Shown here piece by piece: positions 52,158 through 61,429 of a stretch of DNA of 64,000 nucleotides (the first letter of the stretch is position 1; every line of letters begins with the position of its first letter). Both the position numbers and the translations under genes were made by a program. Below the pieces are notes generated by a model. It worked only from the letters and a program-made list of their open reading frames with translations. It ran no database searches and was not told where the DNA came from. The DNA comes from Pseudomonas eucalypticola (lineage in GTDB: Bacteria > Pseudomonadota > Gammaproteobacteria > Pseudomonadales > Pseudomonadaceae), in contig NZ_CP056030.1 in assembly GCF_013374995.1 (NCBI RefSeq), positions 1,148,501 to 1,212,500 on the forward strand, read 5' to 3'.

Positions 52158-55031
52158 CTAGGTTCTCGACGGTTGGTGCTGCATGGCCAGCAAAATCAGG
52201 TGGGGCCGCGCGCCCTGGCCGTTGACGCGTCGCGCATTCAAGGTGATGGTCCGTGGGCCCAGGCCCGGGAGGTCCTGCAGCATCTCGAATCCTTCAAAAC
52301 TAGTGTTGCGCTCCAGAATAGTGCCCAGTTTGTCCCGCAGTGCCACGATATCCCATTGGCCGTCGCCCAGTTCGTAGAATTTGTGGCCGTTGGTCTGGGC
52401 CGCCGACGTATTGAAGGTGCGGTGGTAGGAGCGGCTGGCTGAAACCACGCGCAGCTCATGGTCCAGAACCAGCAAAGGCTCCAGCACCGTGTCGACGATG
52501 GCTTCGGCGAGCTCGCGGGCCGCCTGCACGGCCTGTTCATTGGCCACCCGGGTGTTGATGTCGTGGAAAGTCATCACTACGCCGTCTATCACGTTGTCCA
52601 GGGTTCGGTAAGGCAGCAGCCGGGCAAGGAACCAATTGCCGGAGGTGGTGCGCAGTTCTATTTCCCGCGGGATCAGGGTGTCCAGCACTTCCTGCGCCGG
52701 CACCAGCAGATCGAGCGCGTCCAGGTAGGAGGTGATGTCAGCCAGCGGTCGTCCTATGTCCTTGGGTATCAGCCGGTAAATCTTCACGGCATCGCGGGTA
52801 AAACGCCGGATGGTGAGGTGGGTATCCAGAAATATAGTGCCGATATTGATGCTGTCGAGGAGGTTTTTCATGTCGTTCTGCATGTCGCCCAACTGCTCGA
52901 TCTTGGCTTGCAGTTCGGCGTTGACGGTCACCAGTTCCTCATTGACCGACTGCAGCTCCTCGCGGGAGGTTTCCAGCTCTTCGTTGGACGATTGCAGCTC
53001 TTCATTGGTGGACTGCATCTCCTCGTTGGCCGAGCTGAGCTCCTCGTTGGCGTCCTGCAGCTCGTCGATGCTGGCCTGCAGGTTCTCGCGGGTGTAGGCC
53101 AGGTCGCGTTCCAATTGGGTGACGCGTTCGCGGGTCGGCGCTGCGCTGCGCTTGCTGGCTTGCGCCGCCGGGGCATGGCCCGGTTGGGCCTGTTCCTGGA
53201 AGGTCACCAGCAGCAAGCGCTCGCCGGCGGGGGTGTCGGCCATGCGCCGCACGCTCAGGCGCACCAGGCGCACGGCATCATCGCTGACCACGCTCAGGGG
53301 CGGTGTCACGATGGTCTCGGTGCTGCCAGCGGCGCGGTGCACGGCGTTGCGCAACTCCAGTTGCAGGCCTTCGCGAGCCATGTCCACGACATTCAGGCTG
53401 GCCTGGCCGGGCGCCGGGCGCAGGTAGCGGCTGGTATCGCCGTGGATGTACTGAATGGTGCCGGCCAGGTCGGTGACTACCGAGGCAGGGCCGAACTCTT
53501 GCAGCAGGGCACGCCGGGTCAATTCGGCGAGGTTGGTGTCCTTGGTCATTTTCGCGGGGTGTCCCGGTAGTTTGCTGGTCCGTTCCGGCACCCACGACAG
53601 GCTGCTGTCCAACGGTATGGATTTGGCCACCGTGCCCTTGATGGCACGGTAGAACTTCCATTTGCGGTGCAGCGGGCTGAACAGCGCCGCATGGCCGCCG
53701 ATGCTTTCCGAAGGAGATAGGAACAGCACGCCGCCGGCCTTGAGTGCGTAATGGAAGGTGGGAATGAGGCGGTTCTGCAGGGTCGGCCCCAGGTAGATCA
53801 TGAGATTGCGGCAGCACAGCAGGTCCAGACGGGTGAAAGGCGGGTCCTTGATCACGTTCTGCACGGCAAAGACGATCATTTCGCGGATTTCCTTTCTCAC
53901 CCGGTAGCCGCCTTCCTCTTTGCTGAAGTAACGCTTTAGCCGTTCGTCGCCTACGTCCGCAGCGATGGCTTCCGGGTACAGGCCGGCGCGCGCCAGGTGG
54001 ATGGCGTCGGCGTCCAGGTCGGTGGCGAAAAACTGCACGGTCAGCGCCAGGGAATGGGCCTGCAGCAGTTCGTGCAGCACCATGGCCACTGAGTAGGCTT
54101 CCTCACCACTGGCGCAGCCGGCTACCCATACGCGAAACACGCCATCGCGAGGGGTGCTGGCCAGCATGGGCTCCAGAATGTGCGCCTTCATCACCTCGAA
54201 GGCTTGAGGATCGCGGAAGAACTGGGTGACATTGATCAATAGCTCGTTGAACAGCACCTGGCTTTCCGTCGCGCTGCCGTGCAGCAACGTCAGGTACTGC
54301 GCCTGGTCGTCGATCTGCTGAACCTGCATGCGCCGTTCGATACGCCGTGCGATGGTGCTTTTCTTGTATTGCGTGAAGTCGTGCCCGGTCGCCTGGCGCA
54401 GGTGCAACAGAATCTGCAGCAGCGCATCGCTGGCGCCCGGGTCCGGCACACCGCCCATCAGCGCTGCGGGCATCTGCTCGAGCGCTAGCACCTGACTGGC
54501 GTTGTCCGCTTCCACGACATGCCGGGGCATGGCGTCATACGCTGCTTCGCTGGGCAGCTGTACCAAAGTCCGGCCGCCGTGGTCCAGAATCGCCCGGCAG
54601 CCCAGGGTGCCGTCGGCGCCCGTGCCAGAGAGCACCACGCCTATGGCATGGCCTTTCAGTTGTTCTGCCAGCGAGGTGAAGCACGTATCGATGGGCAAAT
54701 GGTGGCCGCGCGGCGCCTTCCAGGGGCGCACCACCAGGCGGCGGCCGGTCAAGGTCAGGTCATGGTTGGGCGGGATCACGTACACCATGTTCGCCTGTAC
54801 GGGGTTGCCGTGCACGGCCTGCATCACCGGCATGCTGGTGGCCCGGCCGAGAATCTCGCTCAGCAGGCTGGGCCGCGCCGGGTCAAGGTGCTGCACCACC
54901 AGGAAACACAGACCCGAATCGGCAGGCATCAGGCGCAACAGGCGCTCCATCGCTTCCAGGCCCCCGGCAGAGGCGCCCAGGGCGACGATGGTCTGGTATT
55001 TGCCGGCAGGCAGGGTCTTGATCGGGGGCAC
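52158..55031 (-). CDS. CheB-CheR fusion protein with coiled coil and PAS domains
   Basis: A 957-residue fusion. The CheB methylesterase domain (1-190) keeps the triad Ser21 (GASAGG), His48 (VVQHLDP) and Asp140 (GTGADG) but lacks a CheB receiver. The CheR methyltransferase domain (about 215-480) has VWVAGCASGEEAYSVAM for S-adenosylmethionine. A long coiled coil of repeated NEEL/NEEM heptads (about 640-735) and one or two PAS-like modules follow. It stops there: the histidine kinase usually following in such hybrids is absent. It precedes the PAS-GGDEF-EAL gene by 13 bases. Confidence 0.9.
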   Translation of the reverse strand: MPPIKTLPAGKYQTIVALGASAGGLEAMERLLRLMPADSGLCFLVVQHLDPARPSLLSEILGRATSMPVMQAVHGNPVQANMVYVIPPNHDLTLTGRRLVVRPWKAPRGHHLPIDTCFTSLAEQLKGHAIGVVLSGTGADGTLGCRAILDHGGRTLVQLPSEAAYDAMPRHVVEADNASQVLALEQMPAALMGGVPDPGASDALLQILLHLRQATGHDFTQYKKSTIARRIERRMQVQQIDDQAQYLTLLHGSATESQVLFNELLINVTQFFRDPQAFEVMKAHILEPMLASTPRDGVFRVWVAGCASGEEAYSVAMVLHELLQAHSLALTVQFFATDLDADAIHLARAGLYPEAIAADVGDERLKRYFSKEEGGYRVRKEIREMIVFAVQNVIKDPPFTRLDLLCCRNLMIYLGPTLQNRLIPTFHYALKAGGVLFLSPSESIGGHAALFSPLHRKWKFYRAIKGTVAKSIPLDSSLSWVPERTSKLPGHPAKMTKDTNLAELTRRALLQEFGPASVVTDLAGTIQYIHGDTSRYLRPAPGQASLNVVDMAREGLQLELRNAVHRAAGSTETIVTPPLSVVSDDAVRLVRLSVRRMADTPAGERLLLVTFQEQAQPGHAPAAQASKRSAAPTRERVTQLERDLAYTRENLQASIDELQDANEELSSANEEMQSTNEELQSSNEELETSREELQSVNEELVTVNAELQAKIEQLGDMQNDMKNLLDSINIGTIFLDTHLTIRRFTRDAVKIYRLIPKDIGRPLADITSYLDALDLLVPAQEVLDTLIPREIELRTTSGNWFLARLLPYRTLDNVIDGVVMTFHDINTRVANEQAVQAARELAEAIVDTVLEPLLVLDHELRVVSASRSYHRTFNTSAAQTNGHKFYELGDGQWDIVALRDKLGTILERNTSFEGFEMLQDLPGLGPRTITLNARRVNGQGARPHLILLAMQHQPSRT

Positions 55032-55087: not shown

Positions 55088-55483
55088 TCAGGGTTGCAGA
55101 TAGTCTTGTAGCTCGCGGGTACGTTGCTCGGCCCGGTTGCGCTTGCAGCCCAGCGCCGCTAGCCCGCGCAGAGTGCCGCCACTGTTGGCCTGGTAGATGG
55201 CCTCGCAGTCGGCGTCGCGGAACTTGATCCAGGCGCGCTGAGCGATTTGCAGCTTCTGGCGGGTTTCGCTGTATTGCTCGGACTCGGTGTCCGGCTGGCT
55301 GAGGTTCTGGATCAGCTGTTTATAGGTGGCGTTGAGCTTGGCTTCGGCCGCGTCGGCGTCCAGGGCTGCGCACTGGGTCATTTCGGGGGTAGTGCTGGCG
55401 TTGGCGCAGTCGGGTTTCGGCGCCGCGGCCAGGGCGCCGAAAGCCATGAACAGGGTGGTTAACAGCAGATGACGAGGGTGCAT
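55088..55483 (-). CDS. LprI/DUF1311-family periplasmic protein
   Basis: Signal peptide (LLLTTLFMAFGALAAA) then a four-Cys alpha-helical domain with the family pattern AKLNATYKQLIQNL, QRAWIKFRDADCEAIY and GCKRNRAEQRTREL. LprI relatives include lysozyme inhibitors; the biochemical role here is unproven. An alternative start is three codons earlier (55492). Stands alone upstream of the CheB-CheR gene and divergent from the small RNA locus. Confidence 0.85.
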   Translation of the reverse strand: MHPRHLLLTTLFMAFGALAAAPKPDCANASTTPEMTQCAALDADAAEAKLNATYKQLIQNLSQPDTESEQYSETRQKLQIAQRAWIKFRDADCEAIYQANSGGTLRGLAALGCKRNRAEQRTRELQDYLQP

Positions 55484-55590
55484 GGGCAACATCCATGAAA
55501 AAGGGGGCGCTACGTTACCGTGACACTCGCAGCCCCGCTGGGGGAATAGGTGTAGGGATATTACCCCTTGATAGCGAATGCTACGGCAGG

Positions 55591-55608
55591 TATAGCCAAT
55601 GTCTTACA
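55591..55608 (+). promoter_or_regulatory. GacA upstream activating sequence
   Basis: TATAGCCAATGTCTTACA fits TGTAAG-N2-AT-N2-CTTACA in the right half (CTTACA) and centre (AT), with a degenerate left half. It is centred about 65 bases before the predicted RNA start, the usual GacA spacing. A TAATCT at 55653-55658 can serve as -10. Confidence 0.65.
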
Positions 55609-55664
55609 CGCGTTGGTTCTGATGTCCTCTAGGGGAAAGCCGTCCGCGGGCTTAATCTAGCCCC

Positions 55665-55776
55665 ATCAGCTGAGGCAAAGGATTTGCCCGGCGTCACGGA
55701 TGACAGGCCAGAAAGGATTCGCTTCGACAGGGAGTTGAACAGGCCAAACGAAAAACCCGCTTCGGCGGGTTTTTTG
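55665..55776 (+). ncRNA. Gac/Rsm-family small RNA (RsmX/RsmY/RsmZ-like)
   Basis: About 110 bases with no reading frame. It has several GGA motifs exposed in hairpin loops: GGCAAA-GGA-TTTGCC (55674-55688), GTCA-CGGA-TGAC (55693-55704), GAA-AGGA-TTC (55711-55720) and an AGGGA further on. It ends in a perfect Rho-independent terminator (ACCCGC-TTC-GGCGGGT plus T6, about 55754-55775). Such GGA loops titrate RsmA/RsmE-type translational repressors. With the upstream GacA site and length, this is best read as an Rsm RNA; which paralogue is not decided. Confidence 0.75.
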
Positions 55777-55838
55777 TTGCCTGGCTTTTGACCGCGTGTC
55801 GGCCACGGCGCGAGGCATAAAACCTGCGATGACCCGCA

Positions 55839-55918
55839 GCAGCGGACCCGGCCGCGTCGGCGGTACATGCGGTGTACCTGCTGCGCCGCGGCGTTGGTGA
55901 CGCGGCCAGGTCCGCTGC
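55839..55918. repeat. Inverted-repeat (REP/BIME-like) element
   Basis: GCAGCGGACCCGGCCGCGTC (55839-55858) is complementary at 19 of 20 positions to 55899-55918, and GGTACA/TGTACC inside can also pair. Intergenic; probably a dispersed pseudomonad repeat. Confidence 0.55.
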
Positions 55919-55986
55919 TACGAGGCAAGACGGAAGTCATTTGTGCTTTTCGCGGTAACTCGTGTGCCTTTCAGCTTGAGGCTCGC

Positions 55987-60793: not shown

Positions 60794-61282
60794 CGGTGAA
60801 TCTCCTATCGCAAGATGGATCATCACCCAAACCTGCCGCCAAGCAGGAAGAGGGTGACGGGTTACACAAGGTTGGCGGACCGGGCAATAGGCAAACCGGC
60901 ACTTCCGAAGAAGTCCCTGCGCAACCCGCCATAACACAGCATCGCGGGCACGAGACCGTGCTTGCGATGGTGAGGTGCGGCGCTGTTGCGCCTTATTGCT
61001 AGTCGAGCCGCCAAGCTCGGTTGCCTTTTGGCAACTTGGCAAGGCTACCGGGGTGTTCTGCTTAGCGTCAACCGTTCCTCTCCCAGAGGTCCTCGAAGTG
61101 GTGCGGCACCCGTCCCGGGACGCGATCCCGGATTCCGTGAAGAACCAATTGAAAGCGGCTGGCAGGCCATCACAGGGTGTGGCCAAGGGCGAGGTGGTTT
61201 TGGCAGTGTCGGCCTTTCGCAGGCAAGCCTTGCTCTCACACTGACCATGGCGCCTGCGCAGGCTGCGTCCAAATCCCAGGCA
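60794..61282. other. Intergenic region between the DUF3077 gene and the tRNA terminator
   Basis: About 490 bases without a supported gene. It contains a degenerate element end (61129-61147) and is otherwise without recognisable features. Confidence 0.5.
61129..61147. repeat. Degenerate element end (GATTCCGTGAAGAACC)
   Basis: CGGATTCCGTGAAGAACC repeats the terminal 17 bases or so of the palindromic element at 23,823-24,270, preceded at a distance by a matching GTGGTGCGGCAC. No T-run follows, unlike the other copies. Confidence 0.45.
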
Positions 61283-61344: not shown

Positions 61345-61429
61345 TGGTGCCCCGAGGGAGACTCGAACTCCCACTCCTTTCGAAAACGGATTTTGAATCC
61401 GCCGCGTCTACCAATTCCGCCATCAGGGC
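61345..61429 (-). tRNA. tRNA-Leu (anticodon CAA)
   Basis: 85 bases including an encoded CCA. On the minus strand it begins GCCCTGATGGCGGAATTGGT (acceptor and D-arm), has anticodon loop TTCAAAA, a long class II variable arm, the T-arm GTTCGAGTC and an acceptor closing CGGGGCACCA. The anticodon CAA reads UUG leucine codons. Confidence 0.95.

What the first reader, a model, noticed from the sequence alone, without database searches (positions are those of the whole stretch)
55591..55776. Unannotated Gac/Rsm regulatory small RNA
A GacA-type upstream site, a plausible -10, four GGA motifs mostly in hairpin loops and a perfect terminator are all spaced as in RsmX/Y/Z RNAs. Nearby genes are not the usual rsmY/rsmZ neighbours I recall, so this may be an RsmX-type or additional copy. 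It stands a few hundred bases from cyclic-di-GMP and chemotaxis-type genes that the Gac/Rsm system commonly controls.
Basis: partly seen in the sequence, partly recalled or inferred. Interest (0 to 1): 0.7.

Follow-up and report, generated by a model that had tools for sequence, protein, structure and literature searches.

The report
One of four rsmX small RNAs
This stretch is an ordinary copy of RsmX, a known small RNA with which Pseudomonas bacteria soak up RNA-binding regulator proteins and so release blocked genes; this genome carries four such copies.

Summary
Confirmed, and ordinary. Window 55665-55775 (+) matches Rfam rsmX (RF02144) end to end at 74.6 bits, gathering score 56. It has a GacA-type site at 55591-55608, a TAATCT -10 box, four ANGGA motifs and a terminator hairpin. 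Across four genomes the site (18 of 18 bases), RNA body (72 of 84) and terminator (27 of 28) are identical far more than the flanks (11 of 101, 27 of 124). The genome has four rsmX over cut-off, next match 28.2 bits, one rsmY, one rsmZ and three CsrA-family genes. The RNA is divergent to an LprI-type gene, as in at least 75 of 115 genomes with a listed rsmX. The chemotaxis and c-di-GMP neighbours recur at 3 of 20 fetched LprI loci, so closeness to them means little. In this assembly the gacA frame is interrupted after its usual start, but open in five of five other genomes: the RNA may be silent in this strain, or the assembly wrong. Transcription and protein binding are untested. New member of a known kind; low interest.

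The parts
55591..55608 (+). GacA-type upstream activating site (UAS), TATAGCCAATGTCTTACA; first base at -74 from the RNA start
   Evidence: same spacing in 28 of 31 rsmX copies compared (own copies C and D at -73; own copy B at -75); 17 of 18 bases equal to the commonest site, found exactly in 10 of the 31; 18 of 18 identical in four genomes. Published P. brassicacearum UAS TATAGCGAAACGCTTACA (PMC7911923) shares 14 of 18 by my count.
55625..55630 (+). TCCTCT element at -40, between UAS and -10 box
   Evidence: In 4 of 4 own rsmX copies and 11 of 12 copies looked at in genomes G051, G086 and G386, which have 15 in all; in 0 of 24 copies of other genomes, 17 of which have TCGTCT. Role inferred.
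55653..55658 (+). -10 box TAATCT (-12 to -7)
   Evidence: exact TAATCT in 27 of 31 copies, 25 at -12 and 2 at -11. No promoter pair with a -35 consensus found by scan.
55665..55775 (+). RsmX small RNA (rsmX copy A of this genome)
   Evidence: Rfam RF02144, 74.6 bits, gathering 56, model positions 1-114 of 114; fold z-score -3.9. Start taken from the model, not mapped.
55678..55682 (+). ANGGA motif 1 (hairpin loop 1)
   Evidence: GGA unpaired in consensus and in minimum-energy fold.
55696..55700 (+). ANGGA motif 2 (hairpin loop 2)
   Evidence: GGA unpaired in consensus and in minimum-energy fold.
55713..55717 (+). ANGGA motif 3 (between hairpins 2 and 3)
   Evidence: Unpaired in the consensus; its last two GGA bases paired with probability 0.91-0.92 in the single-sequence fold.
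55729..55733 (+). ANGGA motif 4 (hairpin loop 3)
   Evidence: In a loop in the consensus; its last two GGA bases paired with probability 0.98 in the single-sequence fold.
55750..55775 (+). Intrinsic terminator: 11-pair hairpin with UUCG loop, U-rich 3' arm
   Evidence: stretch 55749-55776 identical at 27 of 28 bases in four genomes.
55088..55492 (-). LprI-type protein gene, divergent to the RNA (neighbour)
   Evidence: Pfam LprI PF07007, 87.1 bits; an LprI-type gene lies divergent to rsmX in at least 75 of 115 genomes.

Best explanation
It is an rsmX gene. Phosphorylated GacA (inferred) acts at the upstream site at -74 and switches on a roughly 111-nt RNA that ends at its own terminator. The RNA offers four ANGGA motifs, three in hairpin loops of the family structure, to dimers of the CsrA/Rsm proteins (inferred). 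Binding takes these proteins off the start regions of their target mRNAs and lets those be translated (inferred from published work on RsmX/Y/Z). In this genome it is one of four rsmX copies beside one rsmY and one rsmZ, so its main effect is probably dosage (inferred). Shown here: family membership, structure, promoter layout, conservation, copy number and the presence of CsrA-family genes. Not shown: transcription, GacA dependence, protein binding. In the sequenced strain itself the RNA may be poorly expressed, because gacA looks interrupted.
For: Rfam rsmX match at 74.6 bits over the full model. Clear gap in the genome between four rsmX hits (97.4, 74.6, 68.6, 67.4 bits) and the next match at 28.2; in 14 control genomes none goes over the cut-off. 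UAS, RNA and terminator are conserved as blocks in four genomes while the flanks are not. UAS first base at -74 in 28 of 31 copies. The family alignment has 6 of 23 pairs with double changes and 98.5% of cells paired; covariation 0.211 against at most 0.049 for slid partners. Three CsrA-family genes in the genome. P. brassicacearum rsmX-2, an extra copy, is transcribed in wild type and not in a gacA deletion, and restores gacA-mutant traits when overexpressed (PMC7911923, results section read).
Against: No expression data. The gacA frame is interrupted in this assembly, open in 5 of 5 other genomes compared. GacA dependence is not equally clear for every rsmX in print: in P. savastanoi NCPPB 3335 the RNA-seq log2 changes of the five rsmX copies in a gacA mutant are mixed in sign and mostly under 1 (table passage of PMC10875052). 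Two of four GGA motifs are paired in the minimum-energy fold. No -35 consensus. With the nearest genome, G051, the flanks are conserved too (73 of 101 and 111 of 124), so the contrast rests on G086 and G386. The bit score is below those of all 150 copies listed, a list cut to the best.
Confidence: 0.93

Rival explanations
1. A decayed or silent rsmX copy: the sequence is a family member but no longer contributes, either because extra copies made it dispensable or because gacA is lost in this strain.
For: Lower score than the 150 best copies listed; three other rsmX in the genome; gacA frame interrupted.
Against: UAS identical at 18 of 18 positions and RNA body at 72 of 84 across four genomes whose flanks are identical at only 11 of 101 and 27 of 124; all four GGA motifs are ANGGA in the three relatives' copies too. 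This points to selection on the copy in the lineage, though it says nothing of a recent loss in this strain.
Confidence: 0.08
2. A specialised RsmX that favours one of the three CsrA-family proteins or a different signal, rather than a dosage copy.
For: The copy and its three nearest counterparts form a supported branch of their own, 98/97; all four GGA are ANGGA, whereas own copies B, C and D have two ANGGA each among 5-6 GGA; its UAS differs from those of own copies B, C and D.
Against: Nothing tested here ties these differences to a protein or signal; the authors of the P. brassicacearum study judge the extra copy's overall function likely similar to the others.
Confidence: 0.1
3. A local regulator of the adjacent LprI, CheB-CheR or GGDEF-EAL genes, for example through a shared divergent promoter region.
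For: In all 75 genomes with a listed link the LprI-type gene is divergent and upstream; in the window 172 bases lie between the two starts.
Against: CheB-CheR and GGDEF-EAL were found at 3 of 20 fetched LprI loci; the distance between the listed coordinates of LprI and rsmX varies from 828 to 6895 bases; RsmX is known (from print) to act in trans on Rsm proteins.
Confidence: 0.04

Closest known systems
RsmX small RNA of Pseudomonas (Rfam RF02144)
   Same: Full-length covariance match, GGA hairpins, terminator, UAS and -10 box at the spacing of other rsmX copies.
   Different: Sequence diverged from the family consensus (74.6 bits, many others over 100); one of four copies here.
RsmX-2 of Pseudomonas brassicacearum NFM421 (PMC7911923)
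   Same: An extra rsmX copy of about 110 nt behind a UAS of the same type; shown there to be transcribed in wild type and not in a gacA deletion.
   Different: That copy lies in tandem beside rsmX-1; the window's copy stands alone, while another pair in this genome (copies C and D) is in tandem.
RsmX1-5 of Pseudomonas syringae (Moll et al. 2010, not held; seen in passages of PMC7366521, and PMC10875052)
   Same: Several rsmX copies per genome beside rsmY and rsmZ.
   Different: Here four rsmX; which syringae copy, if any, is the orthologue was not worked out.
RsmY and RsmZ
   Same: Same function class; each present once over cut-off in this genome.
   Different: The window's RNA scores 28.8 bits with RsmY, under its cut-off of 57, and is not listed for RsmZ at E up to 0.1.

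Membership tests
RsmX (RF02144) | Covariance-model match over the gathering score | tested here: met
   74.6 bits, gathering 56, full length.
RsmX (RF02144) | Several GGA/ANGGA motifs, mostly in hairpin loops | tested here: met
   Four ANGGA; three of four GGA in loops of the consensus structure, two of four in the single-sequence fold.
RsmX (RF02144) | Rho-independent terminator at the 3' end | tested here: met
   11-pair hairpin with U-rich arm; identical at 27 of 28 bases in four genomes. The generic scan listed another overlapping site instead.
RsmX (RF02144) | Conserved GacA upstream site at fixed distance | tested here: met
   First base at -74, as in 28 of 31 copies; 18 of 18 identical in four genomes.
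RsmX (RF02144) | GacA-dependent transcription | not testable with these tools
   No expression data; gacA frame interrupted in this assembly.
RsmX (RF02144) | Binding and sequestration of RsmA/RsmE | not testable with these tools
   Three CsrA-family genes present; binding not measured.
RsmY (RF00195) | Covariance-model match over the gathering score | tested here: not met
   28.8 bits against 57; another place in the genome scores 110.9.
PrrB/RsmZ (RF00166) | Covariance-model match over the gathering score | tested here: not met
   Window place not among the 3 matches listed at E up to 0.1; another place scores 116.8.

The most novel reading that the evidence does not exclude
A lineage with expanded rsmX (four here; seven and eight in two other genomes of the genus) in which the LprI-linked copy has diverged into a separate branch with four of four ANGGA sites and its own UAS variant, and serves a distinct CsrA-family protein or signal. 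In the sequenced strain the whole set sits behind an interrupted gacA, so it would be either off or driven by another activator.
Probability: 0.1. Interest if true: 0.45.

Novelty: new member of a known kind. Interest (0 to 1): 0.2.

Why it matters
It adds one well-supported gene to a genome's annotation and shows that this Pseudomonas lineage keeps several rsmX copies, one of them in the divergent LprI-rsmX arrangement common in the genus. It is a useful caution too: a complete set of Gac/Rsm RNAs does not mean that the pathway is on, since gacA itself looks interrupted in this assembly.

Tried and rejected
Looked for a link to the chemotaxis and c-di-GMP genes: dropped, because they were found at 3 of 20 fetched loci. 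Those 20 were picked because they had LprI hits, so they are not a random sample, and 2 of them (L096, L097) showed no rsmX.

Tried to show that the window's copy is the direct orthologue of the common LprI-linked rsmX. The evidence is mixed. For: the same divergent pairing, and 17 of 18 UAS bases. Against: the window's LprI branches apart from the common LprI group and next to an unlinked one (G118; support 89/92), with several long branches; and the RNA tree joins the window's branch with the genome's own tandem pair C/D, 98/95, while the deeper forks are weak. Left open.

GGA counts and the UAS pattern taken alone are not significant. Alignment A1 (29 rows) was discarded because several rows were in the wrong orientation; A2 (27 rows; the rows G125a and G268b were left out) replaced it. 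Its rows were picked by me from high-scoring and LprI-linked loci. The first flank comparison used slices of unequal length, one of which ran short; one search repeated it with equal slices and replaces it (upstream 16 became 11 of 101, downstream 14 became 27 of 124; the other four figures did not change). In the LprI tree the group 'unlinked_or_unknown' includes rows whose linkage I had not looked up, so its change count was not used. In one search the script misplaced the UAS of own copy B; one search gives its place. The count uses only the 150 listed rsmX places and the 150 listed LprI places, so it is a lower bound; 40 of the 115 genomes have no listed link, and two of these (G051, G086) do have linked copies. 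The 31 copies come from the loci (20 picked for LprI hits, two own loci and the window); its 15 weaker matches, at 31 bits or less, were not used.

Full report
Observation. The stretch 55591-55776 was read directly. Rfam's rsmX model matches 55665-55775 on the + strand over all 114 positions at 74.6 bits, gathering score 56, E 7.1e-12 for the 64-kb window, and 8.9e-14 when only 801 bases are searched. It is one of three Rfam matches in the window at gathering level. The RNA folds to -43.8 kcal/mol; shuffles average -30.7, and none of 200 did as well.

Anatomy. The UAS TATAGCCAATGTCTTACA lies at 55591-55608, TCCTCT at 55625-55630, the -10 box TAATCT at 55653-55658, and the RNA start is taken as 55665 from the model. 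GGA motifs begin at 55680, 55698, 55715 and 55731, all in the form ANGGA. The alignment of 27 copies (A2) gives three small hairpins with the GGA motifs 1, 2 and 4 in their loops, and a terminator hairpin. The first helix has double changes at five of its seven pairs. Over the whole structure 98.5% of cells are paired and the covariation score is 0.211, against at most 0.049 with slid partners; of 500 column shuffles, none reached the paired percentage or the covariation score, 5 reached the number of pairs with double changes and 10 the number of pair types. That structure was derived from the same alignment, which favours it. In the minimum-energy fold of the window's RNA, motifs 3 and 4 are mostly paired.

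Chance. Taken singly, the features are weak. The UAS pattern has one match in the window where 0.52 are expected, four GGA in 85 nt has P 0.33 against composition-matched sequence, and the generic scan finds no promoter pair. The case rests on the model score, on spacing (UAS first base at -74 in 28 of 31 copies; own C and D at -73 and, own B at -75), and on conservation in four genomes (own, G051, G086, G386): UAS 18 of 18, promoter region 39 of 56, RNA body 72 of 84, terminator 27 of 28, upstream flank 11 of 101, downstream flank 27 of 124. Pair by pair, RNA body and flanks (upstream, downstream) against the window are: G051 79 of 84, 73 of 101, 111 of 124; G086 77 of 84, 38 of 101, 61 of 124; G386 80 of 84, 51 of 101, 43 of 124. 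So the contrast comes from the two more distant genomes.

The genome. The assembly has 6.40 Mb in two contigs. It holds four rsmX over cut-off: copy B at 3599404-3599516 (97.4 bits), the window's copy A (74.6), and a tandem pair C/D at 5102928-5103035 and 5103159-5103266 (68.6, 67.4). The next match scores 28.2; 11 of 14 control genomes give matches at E up to 10, none over the cut-off. There is one rsmY over cut-off (110.9 bits) and one rsmZ (116.8 bits). Three CsrA-family genes are present; by eye their sequences look like RsmE, RsmA and RsmI, names recalled rather than taken from a call. Two places match the sCache_4 domain, which rings in 1 of 14 controls, E. coli; the better one (69.7 bits, 949-aa open frame) is a candidate GacS, by recalled knowledge of that domain.

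gacA. Next to uvrC lies a gene that I name gacA from its sequence and place (recalled). Its frame is interrupted shortly after the usual start, and the first in-frame ATG, GTG or TTG after the interruption comes only behind the first acidic residues of the receiver domain. In five of five other genomes compared the frame is open through that stretch. This may be a real mutation or an assembly error. [quoted passage not shown] If real, the sequenced strain would probably express its rsm RNAs poorly.

The genus. Of 298 genomes searched, 178 have at least one rsmX at E up to 1e-6: 94 have one, 60 two, 8 three, 13 four, 2 five and 1 eight. [quoted passage not shown] syringae (results section read). 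A closer search of eight genomes found seven copies in G386 and eight in G149. The nearest named relative found is Pseudomonas sp. T1-3-2, with a matching LprI gene at 89% identity and 263 of 307 identical bases over the stretch with UAS and RNA.

Neighbours. The RNA is divergent to an LprI-type gene (PF07007). Among 115 genomes with a listed rsmX, 75 have a listed LprI hit within 8 kb on the same contig, and in all 75 it is divergent and upstream. Both lists were cut at 150 rows, so 75 is a lower bound. The window's locus shares this arrangement, but whether by direct descent is unresolved: the LprI tree and the RNA tree do not place it with the common group. The CheB-CheR fusion and the GGDEF-EAL protein were found at 3 of 20 fetched LprI loci, from G051, G086 and G386.

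Mechanism. From the family, and from work on P. brassicacearum rsmX-2 (transcribed in wild type and not in a gacA deletion, restores gacA-mutant traits when overexpressed; PMC7911923), the RNA most likely sequesters CsrA/Rsm proteins and so frees their target mRNAs. GacA dependence of each copy should not be taken for granted: in P. savastanoi NCPPB 3335 the RNA-seq changes of the five rsmX in a gacA mutant are mixed in sign and mostly small (table passage of PMC10875052). As one of six such RNAs in the genome, its deletion alone may show little. Specialisation of the copies is possible but untested.

Verdict. It is a new member of a known kind, in a genus where several copies are common.

Noticed in passing
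G000:C1:3991892-3992476 (L109 3258-3845, - strand, and the bases before it): The gacA frame is interrupted just after its usual start in this assembly; 5 of 5 other genomes compared have it open. Real mutation or assembly error not settled.
   Followed up: partly
G149:C1 and G386 (several contigs): Two other genomes of the genus carry eight and seven rsmX copies over cut-off, more than the five that PMC7911923 gives for P. syringae. No search was made for reports of higher numbers.
   Followed up: partly
window 60850-60936 (-) and 61345-61429 (-): A C4 antisense RNA (RF01695, 77.6 bits, gathering 45) stands about 400 bases from a tRNA-Leu (CAA) gene. C4 RNAs are known from phages (recalled), so a prophage remnant is possible.
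   Followed up: no
window 55833-55924: A long G+C-rich inverted repeat just downstream of the RNA; it matches several unrelated hairpin families below their cut-offs and may be a REP-like element (guess).
   Followed up: no
window 52931-53003; L052 and L095: In Pseudomonas sp. T1-3-2 the coiled-coil part of the CheB-CheR protein holds a run of 42-base repeats, in steps of 42 over about 370 bases, that align to a single place in the window.
   Followed up: no
window 55625-55630; own rsmX copies B, C, D: TCCTCT at about -40 is shared by all four own rsmX copies, unlike as their RNAs are, and by 11 of 12 copies looked at in G051, G086 and G386; 0 of 24 copies of other genomes have it, and 17 of those 24 have TCGTCT.
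   Followed up: partly
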